Made by a program: the position numbers and the translations under genes. DNA of 21,661 nt from SAR202 cluster bacterium. GTDB lineage: Bacteria > Chloroflexota > Dehalococcoidia > SAR202 > GCA-002694895. Numbering within the stretch: the first letter of the stretch is position 1; every line of letters starts with the position of its first letter. The notes beneath the pieces were generated by a model. It ran no database searches. It was not told where the DNA came from and saw only the letters and a list, made by a program, of their open reading frames with translations. The DNA is taken from positions 1 to 21,661 of the forward strand of contig VFGQ01000056.1 of assembly GCA_009391605.1 (NCBI GenBank), given 5' to 3'. Below are positions 9,021-19,962 of this stretch, piece after piece.

Positions 9021-9338
9021 ATGTTTTTAGTAAGAAGAGTATGTCGTACAGAAAGAGCAAATGCTTGGAAAGTAGCTGACGTACTTACCAAGATTTGTAA
9101 TGCATATGAAGAAAACGGAAGAGATAAAGCCACAATTTATATAGGTGGAGCAGGAACTCCTGCTGCAGAAATTACAGTTTGCGCAGAATGGACTCAAGAA
9201 ACAATTGATGCAAACAGAATGCCAAATGTACCTGCAGCTGTAAAAGAAAATGCTCCTAAACTTATGGAATTAATTCAATCATATGATATAGAATTTTTCG
9301 AAATTGCAACGAAAGATAAAATCAAAGAACGGACTTAA
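9021..9338 (+). CDS. Small conserved protein, probable dimeric alpha-beta barrel
   Basis: A 105-residue cytosolic protein that I cannot assign to a named function. It begins MFLVRRVCRTERANAWKVAD, has a second strand region at about residues 38-58 (KATIYIGGAGTPAAEITVCAEWTQ), and a final strand with IEFFEIATKD. The beta-alpha-beta-beta-alpha-beta rhythm suggests a ferredoxin-like dimeric barrel, similar in kind to the 93-residue protein at 8139-8420 but not obviously homologous. An AAAGGAA ribosome site lies five bases before the ATG. It is downstream of the RidA-like gene on the same strand and probably shares its promoter. It ends two bases before the convergent proline dehydrogenase gene. 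Confidence 0.72.
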   Translation: MFLVRRVCRTERANAWKVADVLTKICNAYEENGRDKATIYIGGAGTPAAEITVCAEWTQETIDANRMPNVPAAVKENAPKLMELIQSYDIEFFEIATKDKIKERT

Positions 9339-10342: not shown

Positions 10343-11077
10343 ATGACTCAACAAAAACAAATTAGAAAATGGGAAAATATAAATTGTCCTGTACATAGAA
10401 AATTGTCTCATAATACCGAAAACTATTTATATGCAATGTATTTACTAGATGAAAAAAATGAAAAAATCACAGCAAGTACTTTATTAGAATACATCAAACA
10501 ATTACCTTCTTCCGAAAATTTAGGTACGAGCCTGCCAACTGTTACTGGAATGCTTAAGAGAATGGCAAGAGATCACTTAATAACAAAAGATAAAAATAAT
10601 GAAATATTTTTAACTGAATACGGCAAAATTTCAGCTAAAGAACAAACTAAAAGATTCAGACTTGCAAGTAAATTTTTGCACGAAATATTAAAAATTGAAC
10701 TTAAAGATGTTTTTCAAGAAGCTCATAGATTAGAACATGCAATGTCACAGGAAGTAGAAAATTCTATTGAAAAATTACTTAATTATCCAAGCAAAGATCC
10801 TTTTGGACAAACTATACCTGGGATAAATTTCAATGTAAATGAACAAAACTTCCCACTTACTAAATCAATTAAAAATGAATTCTATATTATTTCTAAAATT
10901 CCTCCGGAAAATTCAGAATTTGTAGAATTCCTTAATAAAAACAAAGTTCTTCCAGGTAATAAAATTTCAATAACAGAACTGTCAGTTACAAGAGGGATTA
11001 TTACTATTAAAATAAATAAAACTACCGTAGATCTTGGATTAAATATTGCAAAAACTATATGGGTGAAAAACATTTAA
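10343..11077 (+). CDS. DtxR/MntR-family metal-dependent transcriptional regulator
   Basis: A 244-residue DtxR-like repressor with three parts: a winged helix-turn-helix (about 20-95), a dimerisation/metal domain (about 96-160, ending in the family's DPFGQTIPG) and a C-terminal FeoA/SH3-like domain (about 178-243). The recognition region carries extra residues (LPSSENLGTSLPTVTGML). The metal sites are unusual. By alignment with DtxR, the ancillary-site ligands H79, E83 and H98 are F105, S109 and F124, while the primary site keeps E131 and H132 but has H128 for the usual Cys102 and N27 for Met10. It may therefore sense a different metal, or bind only one ion. Members usually repress iron or manganese uptake genes; no such target is visible nearby. 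It is divergent from proline dehydrogenase and lacks a clear ribosome site. Confidence 0.87.
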   Translation: MTQQKQIRKWENINCPVHRKLSHNTENYLYAMYLLDEKNEKITASTLLEYIKQLPSSENLGTSLPTVTGMLKRMARDHLITKDKNNEIFLTEYGKISAKEQTKRFRLASKFLHEILKIELKDVFQEAHRLEHAMSQEVENSIEKLLNYPSKDPFGQTIPGINFNVNEQNFPLTKSIKNEFYIISKIPPENSEFVEFLNKNKVLPGNKISITELSVTRGIITIKINKTTVDLGLNIAKTIWVKNI

Positions 11078-11078
11078 A

Positions 11079-12227
11079 TTAATTAAAATTATTCCATTTA
11101 AATGGATATTTCCTACCATTTAACAATATTCCTATATAGGTTGATCTAACAAAGAATTTATATGTTATTAGACATATAAATGTCGTTAAAATAATTGCCA
11201 AAAGAAATTTAAATTCTGTAAAAAACTCAAATTGAAACATGAAAAAAGTAATAAATGTAACAATTGGTAAATGAATTAAATACATCCAATATGCGCCATC
11301 TGAACAGAATCTTAAAATTGAATTATAAGATCCAAATTTATTTTCAGCCAAGCCAATAAATGAAAAGGAGAATAATATTGAATTACAAATTTTTATAAAT
11401 ATAAAAGGAATCCAAAAAACAGGGGATTGCTCAAAATCCATTGAAATGTATTCCTCTTCGATTAAAGTGTGAATCAAGAAAAATAATATGGCTGATAAAA
11501 AATAATATTTCCAATTATGAATAATATTATGAAATAATTCATTATTTTTATACAAACTATACCCAAAGGCAAAATACATACCTGTAGCAACCGGATTGCC
11601 AACTAATTCTGTCCCCATATCATTGAGACTACATATAGTTAAAATTATTATTAAAGTGATAGGGATTTGAAAATCAAATAAAATTTTTGCAATCAATGAT
11701 TTTATAGAATTAAAAAAAATTATTAATTTTGAAAGTTTTAATATACTCAATAATTTTAAAAAAATCAGAGAATAAAACTTATAAAATATAGTAAATAGAG
11801 TGATTATAATTAAATGCCACAAAAACCATAAATGATGTGGCTGATTATCATTAGAATAAAATAAGGATAATTTTTGCGTATATCCATATTTAAATATCCA
11901 TGGAATAGTTGCACTCATTATAAAAGTAAAAATAATTATAGGTAACAGTACACGTAAGAATCTGTTTTTCCACCAATAGGTCCAACCATATCTACTAACA
12001 AGTAGGCTAGCAAAAAATCCTGAAAGTATAAAAAAAACAGGCATGCGCCACAAATGTATAAATTGAAAAATGATAACAATTAATCTCGAATCATCATTAT
12101 CAGAGGGCCAAATCATACTTTCACCAAAACCCATATATGGTAATGCTGCATGTAAAACAATTCCAAGCAGCATGGCAAAACCTCTTAGAGCATCTAAACC
12201 ATGAAACCTCTGATTAATTGAAGGCAT
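11079..12227 (-). CDS. Acyltransferase family 3 membrane protein (OpgC/MdoC-like)
   Basis: A 382-residue integral membrane protein with about ten hydrophobic helices. The N-terminus has the acyltransferase-3 signature RFHGLDALRGFAML (7-20), with the family's catalytic histidine at H26 (VLHAAL). Further family segments are WRMPVFFILSGFFAS and PHHLWFLWHL. Such proteins move acyl groups (succinyl, acetyl or longer) onto glucans, lipids or cell-surface polysaccharides; the layout is closest to glucan-modifying MdoC-like members, but the substrate is not determinable. The gene starts 47 bases after the Cys-rich small gene of the complex III operon on the same strand. No ribosome site is evident, and no strong terminator separates them, so read-through is possible. 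The stop is one base from the end of the convergent DtxR-family gene. Confidence 0.87.
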   Translation of the reverse strand: MPSINQRFHGLDALRGFAMLLGIVLHAALPYMGFGESMIWPSDNDDSRLIVIIFQFIHLWRMPVFFILSGFFASLLVSRYGWTYWWKNRFLRVLLPIIIFTFIMSATIPWIFKYGYTQKLSLFYSNDNQPHHLWFLWHLIIITLFTIFYKFYSLIFLKLLSILKLSKLIIFFNSIKSLIAKILFDFQIPITLIIILTICSLNDMGTELVGNPVATGMYFAFGYSLYKNNELFHNIIHNWKYYFLSAILFFLIHTLIEEEYISMDFEQSPVFWIPFIFIKICNSILFSFSFIGLAENKFGSYNSILRFCSDGAYWMYLIHLPIVTFITFFMFQFEFFTEFKFLLAIILTTFICLITYKFFVRSTYIGILLNGRKYPFKWNNFN

Positions 12228-12274: not shown

Positions 12275-12346
12275 TTAACAATTGCAGGGATTGCAAGCGC
12301 AATTAACGCATTTGCAATTTGGATTGTCACATTTTTTTTCTGACAT
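12275..12346 (-). CDS. Tiny Cys-rich metallothionein-like peptide (23 aa)
   Basis: A 23-codon open frame begins at an ATG at 12346, one base after the actE stop, and ends with TAA at 12275-12277. The Shine-Dalgarno GGGAGG (12351-12356, minus strand) is the strongest class in the window, lies four bases before the ATG and is made of the last two codons of actE. The peptide starts MSEKK and then holds seven cysteines of 18 residues: C6-x4-C11-x-C13-x2-C16-x-C18-x2-C21-x-C23. Spacers are mostly Asn, Pro, Lys and Ala. Such dense CxC repeats are the hallmark of metallothioneins; enough thiolates exist for a small Zn, Cu or Cd cluster. No histidine is present and the peptide is shorter than known bacterial SmtA-type proteins (~56 residues). 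The metallothionein role is inferred. Translation coupled to actE is strongly suggested. Confidence 0.75.
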   Translation of the reverse strand: MSEKKCDNPNCKCVNCACNPCNC

Positions 12347-12347
12347 A

Positions 12348-13016
12348 TTACCTCCCTTGAATTTTACGAATATATGAAACTAAAGCCCATCTTTCTTTCT
12401 CAGTTAAAATTGAATCATATTGAAGCATACCAGAAGCAATAGGTAAATCATTAGAATATTGAGCCAAACCTGTTCTAGATCCCTTAGATATGAATGCAAA
12501 AATCTCACCATTAGTAGATTGTACTGTTTTATCAGATAATAAATTAGCAGGATACGCACCTTTATTGATGACTTTGCCGTCATCTAATTTTCTATTTACA
12601 TAATTCCTATATTTTCCATTGCCATCTAACTGTTCTCCATGGCAATACACACAATTCTCAGCATATAACAAAGCTCCTTGACCGGATAATTCGTCATCAT
12701 TATATTCAGAAGGAATAGTTAGAGATTTATATTCTTCAGGAGTTCGATTTATTTCTTTCCCATTCATAGGAACTGCTTCAGGATTTGGCATAATCCTTGG
12801 AATTTCCTGACTCTTATAAGATGGTTGATAATGCATTTCACTAAATATCATTATTGCATGACTTCCAGATTTAGGAACTGCAGGCATATCTAAAGTCGAA
12901 GTCTCTCCTAAAATGTTAAGTTCACCTGTTTTAATATTTCCAGTACATGCTGTTAAAAATAATATTGAAAATAAAAATAAAAGAAATGTATATCTCTTAC
13001 CTAAATAACTTATCAT
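12348..13016 (-). CDS. actE: Alternative complex III subunit ActE, monoheme cytochrome c lipoprotein
   Basis: A 222-residue lipoprotein cytochrome from the ATG at 13016. That ATG forms ATGA with the actD stop and has AGAGG six bases upstream; the in-frame ATG at 13022 sits directly on the ribosome site and is less likely. Counting from 13022, a lipoprotein signal ends at LTAC (C26), a linker follows, and one heme site CVYCH lies at 124-128. M199 in ASGML is a likely sixth ligand. ActE is the monoheme subunit on the outer face of alternative complex III and can pass electrons toward a terminal oxidase or soluble carrier. It is the last recognised subunit of the operon. The small Cys-rich gene uses its final codons as ribosome site. 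Confidence 0.9.
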   Translation of the reverse strand: MISYLGKRYTFLLFLFSILFLTACTGNIKTGELNILGETSTLDMPAVPKSGSHAIMIFSEMHYQPSYKSQEIPRIMPNPEAVPMNGKEINRTPEEYKSLTIPSEYNDDELSGQGALLYAENCVYCHGEQLDGNGKYRNYVNRKLDDGKVINKGAYPANLLSDKTVQSTNGEIFAFISKGSRTGLAQYSNDLPIASGMLQYDSILTEKERWALVSYIRKIQGR

Positions 13017-13528
13017 TCCCATCCTCTTTTAGTAGATTCAGCTCCTGATTTTTTTAAAGTATCTTCAGCTTTTTTAATTCTCGATTCACTGACAGTAACC
13101 ACTACGCCAATATAACCTTCAGTCATAATACGTTCATCATAAGCGCCCATAAAAATCTTTGGCAATCTTGATTCAAATAATGCTCCAAGAATAGTTACAA
13201 TAACTGAAAATAATAATGTCATTTCATAAAAGATAACAAGCATTGGAGGAATAGATAAAATTGGTTTCCCTCCTGTTACTAAAGGGTATGCTAATTGTGT
13301 TCCAGCAGTAATTACCAATGCTACTGTAAATCCTATTACAGCTCCAAATATTGGATATCTAAATAATTTATGATGTGGTTCTGCTTCACCAAATGTACCT
13401 TCAGGATATGGTGATCCGGTCATAACCTCTAATTCGTTATCTTTATAGCCTGATTTACGAAGAGAAGATAATGCATCTCCTACTACAGTCTCATCTACAA
13501 ACAATCCTAAAACACTTTTATTAGCCAT
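13013..13528 (-). CDS. actD: Alternative complex III subunit ActD (DUF3341)
   Basis: A 171-residue membrane protein with the DUF3341 layout of ActD. The soluble N-terminus (LGLFVDETVVGDALSSLRK) predicts an alpha-beta start. Two transmembrane helices follow at about residues 58-82 and 95-117, then a C-terminal soluble part containing GYIGVVVTV. ActD clasps the NrfD-like subunits in the complex and carries no cofactor. A GGGAG ribosome site formed by the last codons of the preceding actC-like gene lies about eight bases before the ATG. The 3' end overlaps the actE start as ATGA, showing tight coupling. Confidence 0.9.
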   Translation of the reverse strand: MANKSVLGLFVDETVVGDALSSLRKSGYKDNELEVMTGSPYPEGTFGEAEPHHKLFRYPIFGAVIGFTVALVITAGTQLAYPLVTGGKPILSIPPMLVIFYEMTLLFSVIVTILGALFESRLPKIFMGAYDERIMTEGYIGVVVTVSESRIKKAEDTLKKSGAESTKRGWE

Positions 13529-13531
13529 AAT

Positions 13532-14926
13532 TTACTCCCTTACTACTGCTGAAATATTTCTTTTACCAATTTTTATTATATGCCTGAATCTCATTCCTTC
13601 TTTGACATCAAAAGGAGGGATTATAGGAAAGATTCTTGCAAAAACCAATATACCGCAAATAACAAATGCAAATGTAAATGCAACCAAGCCCATCTCAACA
13701 AGACTAGGTGAATAAGCTCCCCAATTAAAGCTTAATTCTGTTCTTCTGGATAATCCAGGTATAATAATCAAAAAACGTTCTAACCACATACCAACATTAA
13801 CTAATATTGTTGTAAAGAACATCCACTTAGCACTTCTTCTTATATTTTTAAATAACCATGCACCTACCGGTATTATATAAGCTGTGAATAAAAACAAAAT
13901 AAATAAGTAATTCCACGGAGATTGAAAAACCTGCATATTTCTCAATGCGATTTCAGGATCTTCTAAAGGATACAAAGCAAAAATCCATTCTAAAAATAAT
14001 GAGAAAAGCCATATAGTTGCTACAATTACTAATAGTCTTCCTATAGCATCAAAGTGATCAGGTTTAATATATTTGTCCAATTTATATAGCCATAGCAATC
14101 CTGCCATTAAAGTAGCAACACCTGAAACACCCGAATGAATAGCTCCAATAATAAAGTAAGGAGCAAAAATAGTGGAATGCCAACCTTCAACTGCAATAGA
14201 AACTGCAAAGTCCCATGAAACTATACTATGTACAGAAACAAAAATAGGTAGTACTAGTGCAGATAATAAAATTGGAGCTGTGGCTTGGATTTTCCATTGT
14301 CTTGGTGTTCCTCGGAATCCTAAAGCAAGAACACTATATATAATTTTTGGAATTTTAGATTTAACTTTATCTCGAACTAGTGCTATATCAGGGAGTAGAC
14401 AAGTATAAATAAACAAAATAGTGCTGAAAAGATAAGTTCCAACTGCGACAGGATCCCAAACAAAAGGAGATCTGATATTAGGCCAAATCCCTCTTGCAAA
14501 ATCATATCCAATTACTACTGGAGGCAAAGGTGTTATCCAATATATTCTCCAGGGTCTCCCAACATGAAATAAAATATTACTAAGAGCAGCAATCAGAGAA
14601 AATAAAGTTAAAACTTCAGCGGCTCTGGTTATAGGTCTTCTCCATTCTGCCTGAGTTAATCTTAAAATGGCTGAAACCATAATTCCTGCATGACTAATAC
14701 CAATCCAAAAAACAAAATTAGTAATATATGCACCCCAATATACTGGTCTTTTTACATTAGTGACACCTAGTCCACTATATAATTCCCATACATATCCAGA
14801 TAAACCTAATATCATAATCAAACCAAGGGAACCTATTGTCATCCAAAACCATTTTGGCGATCTTATAACTGGAGATACTAAATCATCCGTTATTTGTTTA
14901 TCAGTTAACTGTGCATGTTCTTGCAT
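13532..14926 (-). CDS. actC: Alternative complex III NrfD-like quinol-binding subunit, ActC-like
   Basis: A 464-residue NrfD/PsrC-family membrane protein with about ten transmembrane helices. The segment at 61-81 (PVYWGAYITNFVFWIGIS, then H79) followed by SAILRLTQAEWRRPITRAAE is typical of ActC, the quinol-oxidising subunit next to the Fe-S subunit. A later WPNIRSPFVWDPVAVGTYL stretch supports the same. Its immediate downstream neighbour is actD, as is usual for actC. The ActC/ActF labels rest on remembered sequence character rather than a computed alignment, so the two NrfD paralogues could be named the other way. A GGAG about ten bases upstream serves as ribosome site. Confidence 0.82.
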   Translation of the reverse strand: MQEHAQLTDKQITDDLVSPVIRSPKWFWMTIGSLGLIMILGLSGYVWELYSGLGVTNVKRPVYWGAYITNFVFWIGISHAGIMVSAILRLTQAEWRRPITRAAEVLTLFSLIAALSNILFHVGRPWRIYWITPLPPVVIGYDFARGIWPNIRSPFVWDPVAVGTYLFSTILFIYTCLLPDIALVRDKVKSKIPKIIYSVLALGFRGTPRQWKIQATAPILLSALVLPIFVSVHSIVSWDFAVSIAVEGWHSTIFAPYFIIGAIHSGVSGVATLMAGLLWLYKLDKYIKPDHFDAIGRLLVIVATIWLFSLFLEWIFALYPLEDPEIALRNMQVFQSPWNYLFILFLFTAYIIPVGAWLFKNIRRSAKWMFFTTILVNVGMWLERFLIIIPGLSRRTELSFNWGAYSPSLVEMGLVAFTFAFVICGILVFARIFPIIPPFDVKEGMRFRHIIKIGKRNISAVVRE

Positions 14927-14943
14927 TTATATAATCTCCATAT

Positions 14944-16371
14944 TTAATAAGGCTTACCTTCTACCAAAACTTCAGTATGATGGTATTTTTCATGGCTCCC
15001 ATAAAGAATATATTCCCTATTTTCCCATAAGCTTATAATAGGAACATACTTAGATATGATTAAAATTAAAAATATTGGTAATGAAATTGCTCCTAAAAGA
15101 ACCATCATATCCACAATACTTGGAACAAAGATTTCGGGCAAATTCGCAAATCTATGTGTATTTTCATCTATTGTTCTATCTAAAGAATAAGCCGAAGAAT
15201 AATGTCTGAATCTATCTAAAAAATTCCCAATTAAAACGCTGATAGCAATAATAGGCGGACCATAAAAAGATTTTCTTACGTTATTCAATATTAATAATGT
15301 AAAAGGGATTATAAAAACAAAAAATATTGTACCTAAAAATACAGGAAGATATTTACCAAACATTAAAATTTGTAAAACATCTCGTTCATTAGGTTTTTTA
15401 CCATACCATAAAACCATCAAGCTAGATATAAAAAACCAAACCCACAATAATGAAATGCCAAACAATAATTTACCTAACCCCCAGAATTGATCCAAGCCTA
15501 TATATTCCTTATATCCACCCCACTTCCAAGCAATAAATACAGCAATAATTAATATAGCCACACCACCTTGAATTGCATTGTGAGCTTGAGTTGCAGGATA
15601 TAATGAATCAACCCAACCTGGAAGTAATGTCATCAAAAAATCTGAAGCCAAACAAAAATGAACAGTTATTAAAAGCATAAAATAAAAAATACCCAAAATA
15701 CTAACCCTTTGTCTTAACGAATTCCACTGTTTAGTTGAACCTACCCAACCCAAAGACAAAAATGAATATATTTTATTTTTTCCTTTTGAATTATCTCTTA
15801 AAATCGCAAAGTCAGGACGAGCATTAATCCATAAAAGTGCTAAGGCAGTTAGTATAAATGCGATCATTGCAATCGTAGTCCAAATATGTGGAGAATAAGC
15901 AGGAACTTTACCTGGATCATAAAACCATAATGTATTTCTTCCATCTTCAAGGCTTGGCAATACCCATAACATTGGTAAAAACATTAAGAGTCCTGCTATA
16001 CCTGAAATACAGAATATTTCAGACAATCTAGATACAGGACGTCTCCAGTTACCTCTTGCAACCTTTGTTGCCATGGATAACATAGGTGCTCCCATAAAGG
16101 TAGTAAATATAAAAACACAAGCAGTAACATATACCGACCAGTCACTTAAGTTATCAAATCCATTAATAATTTTTAGAATAACTCCTAATATACCTATAAC
16201 TGAAAAAATTGCAGTAATCATTAAAGAAATTCTAAACATACCCCCTCTTTTATGTAAATGTTTATCTATCAGATCTTTTGAAGGAGGAACCTTTCCAAGA
16301 GATCTTTCGATAACTTTCTCAGGATATATTAATTTCCCTTTTCTAGTTTTACTATCATATTCTGATTTCAT
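14944..16371 (-). CDS. actF: Alternative complex III second NrfD-like subunit, ActF-like
   Basis: A 475-residue NrfD-family membrane protein. A hydrophilic N-terminus of about 45 residues (with EKVIERSLGKVPPSKDLI) precedes roughly ten transmembrane helices. Family segments include NWRRPVSRLSEIF (near 108-120) and DFLMTLLPGWVDSLYPATQA, which corresponds to the region before the central helices in ActF. In alternative complex III the two NrfD subunits face each other; ActF does not contact the Fe-S subunit as ActC does and may help form a proton path. Here it precedes the ActC-like gene, opposite to the common A-B-C-D-E-F order. It starts six bases after actB2 with no clear ribosome site. Paralogue assignment is inferred. 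Confidence 0.78.
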   Translation of the reverse strand: MKSEYDSKTRKGKLIYPEKVIERSLGKVPPSKDLIDKHLHKRGGMFRISLMITAIFSVIGILGVILKIINGFDNLSDWSVYVTACVFIFTTFMGAPMLSMATKVARGNWRRPVSRLSEIFCISGIAGLLMFLPMLWVLPSLEDGRNTLWFYDPGKVPAYSPHIWTTIAMIAFILTALALLWINARPDFAILRDNSKGKNKIYSFLSLGWVGSTKQWNSLRQRVSILGIFYFMLLITVHFCLASDFLMTLLPGWVDSLYPATQAHNAIQGGVAILIIAVFIAWKWGGYKEYIGLDQFWGLGKLLFGISLLWVWFFISSLMVLWYGKKPNERDVLQILMFGKYLPVFLGTIFFVFIIPFTLLILNNVRKSFYGPPIIAISVLIGNFLDRFRHYSSAYSLDRTIDENTHRFANLPEIFVPSIVDMMVLLGAISLPIFLILIISKYVPIISLWENREYILYGSHEKYHHTEVLVEGKPY

Positions 16372-16377
16372 ATTTAT

Positions 16378-17109
16378 TTAATGTGAATGTGATTTATGTT
16401 TTTCTATTTTCTTTAAATATAGAACATTAGGTGACGTGCCATAATGTTCCATCAAGTGATATCCTCTCCCACTTTTTTTACTTTCTTTTTCTTTTATTTT
16501 AGAAACCTTACTATTAGGATCATTCATGTCTCCAAACACTAAAGCTTCTGTTGCGCAAGCATTGACACATGCCGGATTAATGGCTCTATTGCCATCCTCT
16601 ATTTCAAATCCATTTACTTTGGAATCTCTTTTTGTTCTTCTAATTCTCTGAATACAAAAAGTACATTTTTCCATAATACCTCTTGATCTAACTGTCACAT
16701 CAGGATTAAGCTGATTTTTCAAAGAATCGGGCCATTCAGCTTCCCAAAAATTAAAAAATCTAACCTGATAAGGACAATTGTTAGCACAAAATCTGGTTCC
16801 AATACATCTATTATAAACTTGTACATTTAAGCCTTCACTATTGTGGTAAGAAGCATAGACTGGACATACTGGTTCACAAGGAGCTTCATCACAATGCTGA
16901 CACATAATAGGGATAAATCTTGCTTTAACATCAGGGAAAGTTCCCTCCCAATACCTCTCTACTCTAATCCATTGTATTACCCTATTTTCATCATAATCTG
17001 ATTTTTCATTTGATGGTATATTGTTCTCAGATTGACATGCCACAACACATCCCTGACAGCCTGTACATTTATCTAAATCTACTACCATTCCCCATTTTGA
17101 TTGTTTCAT
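16378..17109 (-). CDS. actB2: Alternative complex III Fe-S subunit, ActB2 (separate gene)
   Basis: A 243-residue ferredoxin-type subunit with four cluster-binding groups: C15/18/21/25, C70/73/78/82, C102/108/112 with threonine (T105) where a fourth cysteine is expected, and C149/152/181/185. The Thr-substituted CIGTRFCANNCP motif is the known basis for a [3Fe-4S] cluster in alternative complex III, so three [4Fe-4S] and one [3Fe-4S] are predicted. In Rhodothermus, Chloroflexus and Flavobacterium this domain is the C-terminal part of a single ActB polypeptide; here it is an independent gene, 15 bases behind actB1. AGAGGGG stands about four bases before the ATG. It should relay electrons from the quinol site in ActC toward the hemes of ActA. 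Confidence 0.9.
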   Translation of the reverse strand: MKQSKWGMVVDLDKCTGCQGCVVACQSENNIPSNEKSDYDENRVIQWIRVERYWEGTFPDVKARFIPIMCQHCDEAPCEPVCPVYASYHNSEGLNVQVYNRCIGTRFCANNCPYQVRFFNFWEAEWPDSLKNQLNPDVTVRSRGIMEKCTFCIQRIRRTKRDSKVNGFEIEDGNRAINPACVNACATEALVFGDMNDPNSKVSKIKEKESKKSGRGYHLMEHYGTSPNVLYLKKIEKHKSHSH

Positions 17110-17124
17110 TTATCCCCTCTCTAT

Positions 17125-19353
17125 TTAATGATCAGAATCTGATGATTTTATTTTAATAACATGATTATGAGGATCCCGTTTTGTTTCCTCAAATCTACCC
17201 TCAAATTTAGGTATATTAATATTCTTCTTGGTTTTCTTTATATTAACTTTATTTGAAGACCACGCATGAGCACCAGTATTAGGATCATATGATGTATTCA
17301 TAATAGAATAAATATTTGTACCAAATCCTGATGTATATCTACCTGTCATCTGACCTCCTCCTACTGGCACTGATAAAACATTTGGTGGAGTAGCAGGGGT
17401 AGGATAAGCTACAGCTTTAATTTTACGTCCATTACCATTGTCAATCTCTAAAACATCGCCTTCTTTAATTTTTAATTTATCTGCTTCCTGCTCATTAATT
17501 TCAACCCACGTTTCCCAAGCAATAGTTGTCATTGGATCTGTTAAGCCTTGCAACCAAGGTAAATTTGCTAAGCTTCCATCAGAAACAGTGGTTTTAAAAG
17601 GGATTAAATGATAAGAAGATGTAGAACTTGAAAATTCTGGACTGTTAATTTTTGGCCATTTTTTCAATTTTGTTTTCCCTGATTTGGAGACTCTTGATTT
17701 TACATCCCACCATCCACCTCTAGATAATAAACCATTCCAAAAAGTTTTCAGATCATTTGCTCTTATAGAACCTCTGTTTAAATTCATAATACTTTTTGCA
17801 TCATCCATCAAAATATCTTTCATAGTTTTGCCTGAATATTTATTCTTAAAATCCATAATATTAGATAATTCCATAACAATCTCTTCAGCACTTTTAGTAC
17901 CGGATTGTCTTCCCTTATTAGAAAATTGACTTTTTACTATTGGCTGTTGAAATCCTACAACTTCGTATCCGGGACCGATTACAGGAACATCATTTCCCCA
18001 TGATTCAAACTGAGTATTTAAGGGGAGAATAATATCTGCATATTGTGAAGTATCATCAACAAATGAATTCATTGAAACTATAAGTCCTAATTTACTCAGA
18101 GATGATTTGAAATTTATATTACCAGACACTGAATAATTCAAATCTACCTGATTAATAAATAATGAATTAGTAGTACCTGAATCTATATCTCCAATAAGAG
18201 ATAAAATTTCCTGATAAGAACTAGTTGTTCTGGAAGAATGCAAATCTGCTAAAGGTGAATCGGGATTTAATATCAGTCCACCCTCTTTATTAATATTGCC
18301 CAAAAGTAAATTTAACGCATATATAGCTATCATATTTGATGAACCATTTGTATTACCAGAAGCAGTATCACCTCCAATAATTAAAGGATGTTTTGATTTA
18401 GCCAATTTATGAGCCAAGTCAACTATTTTATCTGATTTTACACCAGTTATTTTTGAAATTTTTTCAGGAGTAAATCCTGAAAGATCATTTAAATTAATCT
18501 TCTTGGCAAAATCTGTATTTACTAATTTTTCAGAAATTAAAACATATGCTATTGCAGAAGCAATCATACCTTCAGTTCCTAATTCACAAAATATCCATTC
18601 ATCAGAATTGGTAGCTGTTAAAGACAATCTAGGCTCAATATGATATAAATTACCTCTTGGTGAAGTTCTGAATTTTCCATACTCTCTTCCAAACATTGCT
18701 TGTGAATAAGAGGAATTCAAAAAATCCATTCCAAAATTGAGCACCATATCTGAATTACCAATATCCAATTTTGGCATATTATTTGAACCAGTAATTATAT
18801 TTAAAGCATTAATTAAGTTAGTATCATCAAAAGAAGAATAACTTAATAATTTATTCCCAAGTTCATCTGAAAAAGCACTAATAATAGAATTACTTCTTCC
18901 TCCAAGTGGTTTAGTTACAAATCGAGATTTATCATGTCCCAAAGTATTAAGTTGATCATTAATTCGCTGGTAAGCGTCATTCCATCCTATTTCAATCCAT
19001 TTACCACTTCCTCTATTTCCATCTCTTACTAAAGGAGACTCTAATCTTTCAGGATGATATAAAATTTGCAATTCGGCTTCATTGGAATAACTATGAGCAC
19101 CTGTATTACTAGGATAATCTGAATTACCTTCTACTTTTTTTGCTCTTCCTTCCATTATCCTGACTGCAAGGCCTTCGCCGTTAGATCCAAGTGTAGCGTA
19201 CCAATTATCTATGCCGGTAACCTGATCTTCAGGAAGCTTGTTAGGAGACTGGAAATATAATTCTTCATCAGGAACTCCGCAAGCACTAAAAACTATAGCC
19301 CCTGTTGCTCCTCCGCCAATTAATTTTATAAAATCTCTTCTAGTTAAATCCAT
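17125..19353 (-). CDS. actB1: Alternative complex III molybdopterin-fold subunit, ActB1
   Basis: A 742-residue protein of the molybdopterin oxidoreductase fold. The N-terminus is a twin-arginine signal (TRRDFIKLIGG) ending near C25 (FSAC), so export by Tat and possibly lipid anchoring are expected. After the signal there is no CxxCxxxC motif for the usual N-terminal Fe-S cluster, and no Mo-ligating Cys or SeCys is apparent. This agrees with the known alternative complex III B1 domain, which keeps the fold but lacks molybdenum. The C-terminal part (EINEQEADKLKIKEGDVLEI) is the molydopterin-dinucleotide-binding barrel remnant. The ribosome site GAGGAA overlaps the actA stop codon. The partner Fe-S domain, usually fused, is the next gene. 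Confidence 0.92.
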   Translation of the reverse strand: MDLTRRDFIKLIGGGATGAIVFSACGVPDEELYFQSPNKLPEDQVTGIDNWYATLGSNGEGLAVRIMEGRAKKVEGNSDYPSNTGAHSYSNEAELQILYHPERLESPLVRDGNRGSGKWIEIGWNDAYQRINDQLNTLGHDKSRFVTKPLGGRSNSIISAFSDELGNKLLSYSSFDDTNLINALNIITGSNNMPKLDIGNSDMVLNFGMDFLNSSYSQAMFGREYGKFRTSPRGNLYHIEPRLSLTATNSDEWIFCELGTEGMIASAIAYVLISEKLVNTDFAKKINLNDLSGFTPEKISKITGVKSDKIVDLAHKLAKSKHPLIIGGDTASGNTNGSSNMIAIYALNLLLGNINKEGGLILNPDSPLADLHSSRTTSSYQEILSLIGDIDSGTTNSLFINQVDLNYSVSGNINFKSSLSKLGLIVSMNSFVDDTSQYADIILPLNTQFESWGNDVPVIGPGYEVVGFQQPIVKSQFSNKGRQSGTKSAEEIVMELSNIMDFKNKYSGKTMKDILMDDAKSIMNLNRGSIRANDLKTFWNGLLSRGGWWDVKSRVSKSGKTKLKKWPKINSPEFSSSTSSYHLIPFKTTVSDGSLANLPWLQGLTDPMTTIAWETWVEINEQEADKLKIKEGDVLEIDNGNGRKIKAVAYPTPATPPNVLSVPVGGGQMTGRYTSGFGTNIYSIMNTSYDPNTGAHAWSSNKVNIKKTKKNINIPKFEGRFEETKRDPHNHVIKIKSSDSDH

Positions 19354-19365
19354 ATTCTATATTCC

Positions 19366-19962
19366 TCAATAATGACAAGTAGTACAATCAGTTGAAGCAC
19401 CATTTGCTCTATGGCAATCTACACACCACCCCATTTTCATAGGAGAAACTTGTTTTACTTTATTCATAGATGCCACATCTCCATGACAAGTAGAGCAAAC
19501 CTCACTTGCTTCTATATCATTTTTCTCAGATAATTTTTTTATATGTGGCGGATGATAAAATTTGGCATGATCAGGAAGTCTATGTACCCTTACCCAATCA
19601 ATCGGTTTGCCTCCGCTATATGCATCTCTGATTTTTTTGATTTCTTTATTATCATCACCAACAACTCTGTGGCAAGACATACAAAATTCAACAGGTGGTA
19701 TGGCTGCTACTGCTGCACCTTCTGTTCCAAAACGATGACAATAAGTACATTTCATACCAAGATCCTTTACATGGGGGGAATGTTTAAAAGCTATCGGTTG
19801 ATCAGGACCTTCATCAAAACCAAAAAGTGGTTGAGTCCACCATGCAGACCCAACGAATAAAACAGCAATTATTAATATTACTAAAGTTATTAAAGTCCCC
19901 AATCCAGAAATCAACAAGATCTTTTGACTTATTTTTGGAACTCTAAAATCACCAGGTATCAA
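19366..19962 (-). CDS. actA: Alternative complex III subunit ActA, pentaheme cytochrome c
   Basis: A 198-residue protein with one N-terminal transmembrane helix (about 15-38) and five heme c sites: CTYCH 72-76, CMSCH 94-98, CSTCH 156-160, CVDCH 180-184 and CTTCH 193-197. This is the membrane-anchored pentaheme subunit that receives electrons from the Fe-S subunit. The start is TTG at 19962, not ATG: an AGGGG ribosome site (19968-19972) sits exactly five bases before it, and the next in-frame ATG is at residue 70, inside the first heme region. The gene follows the 96-residue membrane protein by 18 bases and is directly ahead of actB1. Confidence 0.93.
   Translation of the reverse strand: MIPGDFRVPKISQKILLISGLGTLITLVILIIAVLFVGSAWWTQPLFGFDEGPDQPIAFKHSPHVKDLGMKCTYCHRFGTEGAAVAAIPPVEFCMSCHRVVGDDNKEIKKIRDAYSGGKPIDWVRVHRLPDHAKFYHPPHIKKLSEKNDIEASEVCSTCHGDVASMNKVKQVSPMKMGWCVDCHRANGASTDCTTCHY

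What the first reader, a model, noticed from the sequence alone, without database searches (positions are those of the whole stretch)
12275..12356. Minimal metallothionein-like peptide coupled to the alternative complex III operon
A 23-codon gene, easily missed by length cut-offs, begins one base after actE, with a strong GGGAGG ribosome site built from the last actE codons. Its seven cysteines fall in a regular CxC-x2-CxC-x2-CxC array. This looks like a thiolate metal-cluster peptide made in step with a metal-rich respiratory complex. A role in buffering copper, zinc or iron near cytochrome maturation or the downstream oxidase is conceivable. No established family this short is known to me. 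The coincidence of start, ribosome site and cysteine pattern makes chance coding unlikely.
Basis: partly seen in the sequence, partly recalled or inferred. Interest (0 to 1): 0.8.

Follow-up and report, generated by a model that had tools for sequence, protein, structure and literature searches.

The report
Minimal metallothionein shared with phages
A 23-amino-acid, cysteine-packed peptide gene tucked behind a respiratory-complex gene of a Chloroflexota bacterium is real and conserved, and belongs to an apparently undescribed family of tiny metal-binding peptides found in other bacteria and in phages, whose cysteine unit is also built into metal-type gene repressors.

Summary
Window 12275-12346 (-) encodes MSEKKCDNPNCKCVNCACNPCNC one base after the actE stop, with GGGAGG at 12351-12356. 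Its Cys array is expected about 5e-6 times per window. It follows actE in all 4 same-genus genomes with an actE match; pN/pS is 0.12-0.30 in the clean sequences.

The unit defines an unmodelled family: 62 distinct peptides of 19-53 residues in four families of the SAR202 order, Mycobacteriaceae, one Acidimicrobiia genome and 41 viral contigs. The actE link is genus-specific: 0 of 26 other actE loci examined. Elsewhere the peptide lies beside mycothione reductase or near phage iscU (10 of 80 iscU loci against 0 of 80 portal loci). The same unit opens 103 of 120 listed BlaI/MecI/CopY-type repressors.

Best reading: a cytosolic all-thiolate mini-metallothionein that ties up Cu(I)/Zn and so protects Fe-S and thiol-enzyme assembly, here made in step with complex III. 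Metal binding is inferred, not shown. "No family this short" overlooks seven-cysteine fungal Cu metallothioneins.

The parts
12275..12346 (-). mini-metallothionein gene, 23 codons, 7 Cys, no His, no signal peptide
   Evidence: conserved
12351..12356 (-). GGGAGG ribosome site inside the 3' end of actE, 4 bases before the ATG
   Evidence: purine-rich stretch at the same place in L001-L004
12348..13022 (-). actE: monohaem cytochrome c lipoprotein (lipobox LTAC, one CXXCH)
   Evidence: Pfam Cytochrom_C; motifs
13013..13528 (-). actD
   Evidence: Pfam ActD 8.3e-28
13532..14926 (-). NrfD-type membrane subunit (ActC-like)
   Evidence: Pfam NrfD 7.7e-25
14944..16371 (-). 475-aa protein of the operon, no Pfam match
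16378..17109 (-). 4Fe-4S subunit (ActB2-like)
   Evidence: Pfam Fer4 families
17125..19353 (-). molybdopterin-oxidoreductase-like subunit (ActB1-like) with twin-arginine signal RRDF
19366..19962 (-). pentahaem cytochrome (ActA-like, 5 CXXCH)
   Evidence: Pfam Cytochrome_C7; motifs
11079..12227 (-). acyltransferase-3 membrane protein, next gene on the same strand, 47 bases after the peptide
   Evidence: Pfam Acyl_transf_3

Best explanation
The peptide is a cytosolic, all-cysteine mini-metallothionein. Shown: it is a conserved gene under purifying selection, placed for co-translation with actE, and built of one seven-Cys unit that recurs as free peptides, as doubled peptides, in phages, and as the N-terminal part of BlaI/MecI/CopY-type repressors. 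Inferred: the seven thiolates wrap a small cluster of thiophilic ions (Cu(I) first, or Zn/Cd), as in the seven-Cys fungal Cu metallothioneins. Inferred: it acts as a sink that keeps Cu(I) and Zn off Fe-S scaffold proteins and reactive thiols while Fe-S proteins are loaded; in this genus the client would be the Tat-exported Fe-S part of complex III, so that sink and client are made in step.
For: Gene real. Family: (62 distinct peptides in fetched loci; the collecting pattern fixes the seven-Cys spacing, so Cys retention in that list is by construction). 48 of the 62 have no His. Metal sensing: a family hit in G1077 is the same unit fused to a Penicillinase_R repressor (Pfam 5.6e-16), next to the end of a P-type ATPase whose best NCBIfam match is the heavy-metal subfamily (E 2e-58, score below the curated cut-off, a fragment). 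Of the 120 listed of 406 homologues, 103 have exactly the free peptide's spacing and 106 have CxNPxCxC; these are the hits most like a query that has the unit. L057: free two-unit peptide with a heavy-metal P-type ATPase (cut-off passed for the heavy-metal, Cu and Cd subfamilies), PepSY_TM gene overlapping or abutting it and a Penicillinase_R repressor; L053: HMA domain at a contig end and PepSY_TM. Thiol link: mycothione reductase directly upstream in 12 of 14 strict-motif Mycobacteriaceae loci. Fe-S link in phages: 10 of 80 iscU loci carry a peptide, always on the iscU strand, against 0 of 80 T4-type portal loci and 0 of 400 Markov copies; 17 of 30 peptide-bearing viral contigs have iscU in the held flank (partly seeded from iscU neighbours, so biased). 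Pfam confirms NifU_N, Fe-S_biosyn and Glutaredoxin in L119. Precedent: Zn and Cu block Fe-S assembly in E. coli, Zn by binding IscU, IscA and ferredoxin and Cu by binding IscA (passages, one from the abstract, PMC6495748). Compartment: no signal peptide; Tat signal on the ActB1-like subunit.
Against: No metal-binding data. Contexts are heterogeneous: f28 and f15 members sit in varied neighbourhoods with no shared metal theme that I could see by eye. The ATPase near L051 is of a non-heavy-metal type. The ACIII link is confined to one genus and may be incidental. 70 of 80 phage iscU loci lack the peptide in the held flank. In L116-L118 the phage peptide sits among head genes, without iscU in the held flank of L116 and L118. 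Some neighbours (uptake ABC system in f23, iscU in phages, Fe-S rich ACIII) would also fit an iron role.
Confidence: 0.6

Rival explanations
1. General Cu/Zn detoxification or storage metallothionein whose place behind actE is incidental (a small gene that landed there in the genus ancestor and uses the operon's transcript).
For: The actE link is genus-specific; members elsewhere have unrelated neighbours; heavy-metal ATPase and CopY-type repressor company in Actinobacteria.
Against: Does not by itself predict the excess of the peptide next to phage iscU nor the repeated mycothione reductase link.
Confidence: 0.28
2. Iron or Fe-S carrier: the peptide holds Fe(II) or a small Fe-S cluster and hands it to scaffold proteins or to the ACIII Fe-S subunit.
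For: Beside IscU/IscA in phages, beside the Fe-S rich ACIII operon, beside a Peripla_BP_2 uptake protein in L104.
Against: CxC arrays are those of metallothioneins rather than of Fe-S proteins (general knowledge); the unit is built into CopY-type repressors.
Confidence: 0.08
3. Cysteine-responsive leader peptide: ribosome stalling on the Cys run controls the downstream acyltransferase gene.
For: Short ORF of 30% Cys just upstream of another gene.
Against: Cys spacing and the N-P residues recur in other lineages, in phages, before different genes, doubled, and inside a regulator protein; no attenuator was sought.
Confidence: 0.02
4. Chance open frame.
For: Only 23 codons; no protein library model.
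Against: Expected 5e-6 per window; conservation and pN/pS.
Confidence: 0.005

Closest known systems
Fungal family-I Cu metallothioneins (Neurospora crassa, Agaricus bisporus)
   Same: Short, seven Cys; those take up about six Cu ions (passage, PMC13107397).
   Different: Different Cys spacing (recalled); the family profile matched no solved chain at E up to 10; no metal data here.
BlaI/MecI/CopY-family repressors with an N-terminal Cys unit
   Same: The unit has the same spacing and CxNP start as the free peptide in 103 and 106 of 120 listed proteins.
   Different: There it is part of a ~150-aa DNA-binding protein; the window peptide is free-standing. CopY's own Cu site is C-terminal (recalled).
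MymT, mycobacterial Cu metallothionein
   Same: Small and Cys-rich; MymT is 4.9 kDa and predicted to bind up to six Cu(I) (passage, PMC7558416). One branch of the new family is also mycobacterial.
   Different: New members carry the CxNPNCxC unit; no sequence comparison with MymT was made.
SmtA/BmtA prokaryotic metallothioneins
   Same: Bacterial, with a CxC-x2-CxC stretch (recalled for SmtA).
   Different: SmtA has a zinc-finger fold (passage); the window peptide has no His and is much shorter (SmtA length recalled); no Pfam match at E up to 10.
Phage Fe-S assembly auxiliary genes (iscU, A-type carriers)
   Same: 17 of 30 peptide-bearing viral contigs tested have iscU in the held flank. These genes are described in marine viruses, with grx in one (passages, PMC5332604).
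   Different: The words metallothionein and cysteine-rich do not occur in that paper's main text.

Membership tests
Metallothionein (general kind) | Short, very Cys-rich, CxC / CxxC arrays | tested here: met
   7 Cys in 23 residues; same array in the family
Metallothionein (general kind) | Binds several Cu(I), Zn or Cd in thiolate clusters | not testable with these tools
   needs titration and mass spectrometry
SmtA/BmtA prokaryotic metallothionein | Profile match | tested here: not met
   no Pfam match at E up to 10 for the window peptide and 8 relatives; no NCBIfam match for the peptide at E up to 1 or for the 8 relatives at E up to 10
SmtA/BmtA prokaryotic metallothionein | Zinc-finger fold with His ligands (His recalled) | tested here: not met
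   no His in the window peptide; 48 of 62 family peptides have none
Fungal family-I Cu metallothionein | Seven Cys | tested here: met
   passage
Fungal family-I Cu metallothionein | Sequence homology to solved chains | tested here: inconclusive
   no PDB chain matched at E up to 10; short queries have little power
MymT | Sequence homology to MymT | not tested
   no comparison made
ACIII subunit | Present with actE across ACIII loci | tested here: not met
   4 of 30 actE loci examined, all in one genus; the actE places of 59 further genomes were not examined

The most novel reading that the evidence does not exclude
A previously unrecognised mobile seven-Cys module makes the smallest bacterial and phage metallothioneins (19-53 residues) and also serves as the sensor part of repressors; as a free peptide it is a dedicated guard or metal partner of Fe-S assembly: one bacterial genus couples it to an Fe-S rich respiratory complex, and phages carry it with their own IscU/IscA/glutaredoxin genes as an auxiliary gene.
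Probability: 0.3. Interest if true: 0.85.

Novelty: new variant of a known kind. Interest (0 to 1): 0.7.

Why it matters
Genes this short fall below annotation cut-offs: one protein search with a 51-residue free member found a single relative among 5.8 billion predicted proteins (only proteins of about 28-89 residues were candidates), no Pfam or NCBIfam model matched the nine peptides tried, and the one plasmid record with a member lists no gene there, though that gene table is incomplete. The repressors with the same unit are in the databases. If the reading holds, minimal metallothioneins are spread over bacteria and phages largely unseen, and some phages protect or feed Fe-S assembly with a peptide of about 35 residues. 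It is cheap to test because the peptide can be synthesised.

Tried and rejected
Pfam, NCBIfam and PDB sequence searches of the free peptides gave nothing. tblastn of the window peptide against plasmids and of the 37-residue phage peptide against named phages gave none. The first viral scan's only locus (L047) showed no family peptide. In one search two loose-pattern frames (L015, L016) were dropped as unlike the family. Weak genome hits without the unit were dropped: L039-L044 and L046; L079, L081, L084-L086 (L085 and L086 have a stop inside); L098, L100. L099, L076 and L083 have altered spacing and are not in the counts. L058 (the one phylum-sample hit) showed no such frame. (order of G494): 1 of 4, the query genome; the repressor matched in 18 of 247 genomes of the class, but only G1077 shows the Cys unit, and of the 18 loci only that one has the ATPase in the held flank. 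A cytochrome-biogenesis guess for the gene before the peptide in L055 was not confirmed by Pfam. Neighbours of L056 were not scanned. Ten paper searches gave listings in which I saw no description of this peptide; the word metallothionein was looked for inside four papers (PMC7029224, PMC7558416, PMC5332604, PMC8940887): none in the first, third and fourth, general passages in the second. No structure prediction was made: a metal-free model of such a peptide says little.

Full report
What is there. The minus strand of 12275-12346 encodes MSEKKCDNPNCKCVNCACNPCNC. Its ATG follows the actE stop by one base and GGGAGG lies in the last actE codons. The operon upstream is an alternative complex III: pentahaem cytochrome, molybdopterin-like subunit with a twin-arginine signal, 4Fe-4S subunit, a 475-aa protein without Pfam match, NrfD, ActD and the monohaem lipoprotein ActE. 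The next gene on the same strand is an acyltransferase. No oxidase was seen among the 19 window ORFs scanned (9, 10) of 28 listed.

Is it more than chance. The six-Cys array is expected 5.3e-6 times in such a window and appeared in 0 of 1500 simulations. An actE search matched 89 of 98 related genomes; loci were fetched for the best 30. The peptide follows actE in 4 of these 30, namely all four same-genus genomes with an actE match, and in 0 of the 26 others. Six pairs among the four clean genus sequences give pN/pS 0.12 to 0.30. The gene is real.

Where it comes from. The window's own assembly is not held.

The family. In the order, 18 of 250 genomes matched the profile at E up to 0.1. Fifteen show the seven-Cys unit on reading: four of the window's genus (one, G005, with N), four of family f23, six of f28, one of f15. 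In the phylum sample 1 of 400 matched, weakly and without the unit. The genome-collection scan confirmed 10 loci of 46 candidate stretches, among them three Mycobacterium MAGs, Mycobacteroides and one Acidimicrobiia MAG. In Mycobacteriaceae 22 of 201 genomes matched; of the 21 loci other than the query's own, 14 show the strict unit and two more a unit with wider spacing. In the class of the Acidimicrobiia genome 2 of 247 matched: the query genome and G1077. Viral scans gave 31 distinct contigs and the iscU scan 10 more (names), 41 in all, not all independent. Sixty-two distinct peptides were collected from fetched loci (the window's own not counted): 19 to 53 residues; 36 with 7 Cys, 22 with 9, one with 10, three with 14. 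The collecting pattern fixes the spacing of the first seven Cys. The three Mycobacterium MAG members carry the unit twice; many phage members add a CxC and end in a stretch such as QVAPV or QVAAI.

The unit inside repressors. G1077's hit is not a free peptide: the unit opens a 148-aa protein whose rest is a Penicillinase_R repressor, convergent with the end of a P-type ATPase best matched by the heavy-metal subfamily (fragment, below cut-off). A protein search with it found 406 proteins; of the 120 listed, 103 have exactly C-x4-CxC-x2-CxC-x2-CxC and 106 have CxNPxCxC. Four listed names read BlaI/MecI/CopY family transcriptional regulator of Acidimicrobiales MAGs. The list is of hits most like a query that has the unit, so it does not give the unit's frequency among such repressors: in a sample of 247 genomes the repressor matched 18 and only G1077 showed the unit. 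That the same unit serves a repressor of the CopY kind is the best hint that it binds a thiophilic metal.

Contexts of the free peptide. (a) Window genus: after actE. (b) f23: beside genes of an ABC uptake system; Peripla_BP_2 confirmed in L104 only, the others by eye. (c) f28 and f15: varied neighbourhoods by eye. (d) Mycobacteriaceae: mycothione reductase directly upstream in 12 of the 14 strict-motif loci, not in L066 and L075, and in the Tsukamurella record. L057: heavy-metal P-type ATPase about 2.3 kb away on the other strand, PepSY_TM gene overlapping or abutting the peptide, Penicillinase_R repressor downstream. L053: HMA domain at the contig end, PepSY_TM gene overlapping. L051: ECF sigma factor before it, and a P-type ATPase with a Cation_ATPase_N domain, not of the heavy-metal type, after it. 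(e) Phages: iscU, iscA-type genes, glutaredoxin and ribonucleotide reductase around the peptide in L119 and kin; in L116-L118 it lies between a T4-type portal region and the prohead protease, without iscU in the held flank of L116 and L118.

Test of the Fe-S link. With T4-type portal as bait, 0 of 80 do, over a similar amount of DNA; the query's own contigs, which have a peptide, were not among those 80. Fisher's p is 0.0014, but loci are related and the two baits sample different phages, so this is an indication and not a proof.

How it most likely works. Shown: a conserved gene, Cys spacing kept, no export signal, a unit shared with repressors. Inferred: the thiolates bind a small Cu(I) or Zn cluster. 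Zn and Cu stop Fe-S assembly in E. coli by occupying assembly proteins (passages, PMC6495748), so a cytosolic thiol sink next to Fe-S loading makes sense in phages and for the Fe-S part of complex III before Tat export. Heavy-metal ATPase and mycothione reductase neighbours fit the same sink. An iron or Fe-S carrier is not excluded, and the operon position in this genus may be incidental.

What is known. Seven-Cys fungal Cu metallothioneins (passage) are nearest in size and Cys number; SmtA and MymT (passages) are the bacterial ones considered, and no Pfam model matches. Phage iscU and A-type carriers are known (passages). No description of this peptide family was seen in the ten searches of an open-licence library, which lacks most subscription journals.

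Verdict. A genuine, overlooked mini-metallothionein family; new variant of a known kind; metal and client unproven.

Noticed in passing
L122 1150-1596 (-): The seven-Cys unit fused to the N-terminus of a BlaI/MecI/CopY-type repressor beside a heavy-metal-type ATPase fragment; 103 of 120 listed homologues carry the unit.
   Followed up: partly
L116 4004-4072, L117 4004-4072, L118 3693-3779: Viral contigs with a T4-type portal carry a 22- to 28-codon peptide of the family between the portal region and the prohead protease gene.
   Followed up: partly
L119 4004-4117, L144, L146-L152, L160, L161, L173 and others: Many phage peptides share a C-terminal tail such as QVAPV, QVAAV or VVAI; it could be a degradation signal that would release bound metal. 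Untested.
   Followed up: no
L130 (peptide start 2998): A 19-codon member, the shortest found, in a contig with a glutaredoxin-like and a ribonucleotide-reductase-like gene (by eye).
   Followed up: no
L054 / L034 (G075:C40, PAAV01000031.1): A contig in a Chloroflexi MAG looks like phage DNA (RNR, RuvC-like resolvase, phage families; near-identical stretch in IMG/VR L119): misbinned or an infecting phage.
   Followed up: partly
window 9021-9338 (+) and L105 4156-4485: A conserved ~105-aa protein without Pfam match near the peptide in the window's genus; a look-alike (by eye) lies beside a family peptide in an f28 genome. May be coincidence.
   Followed up: no
window 10343-11077 (+): DtxR/MntR-type regulator with FeoA domain, convergent with the acyltransferase; look-alikes at the same place in L048-L050 (by eye).
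   Followed up: no
L059 5980-6081: Tsukamurella record: family peptide right after mycothione reductase with no gene listed there.
   Followed up: partly
L076 and L083: Mycobacteriaceae peptides with a related unit of wider spacing (CDNPDCTCGPDCxCGENCTCG); not counted in the family.
   Followed up: no
G005:C14 (L004): Many N in the relative's assembly around actE and the peptide; first Cys spacing appears one residue shorter there.
   Followed up: no
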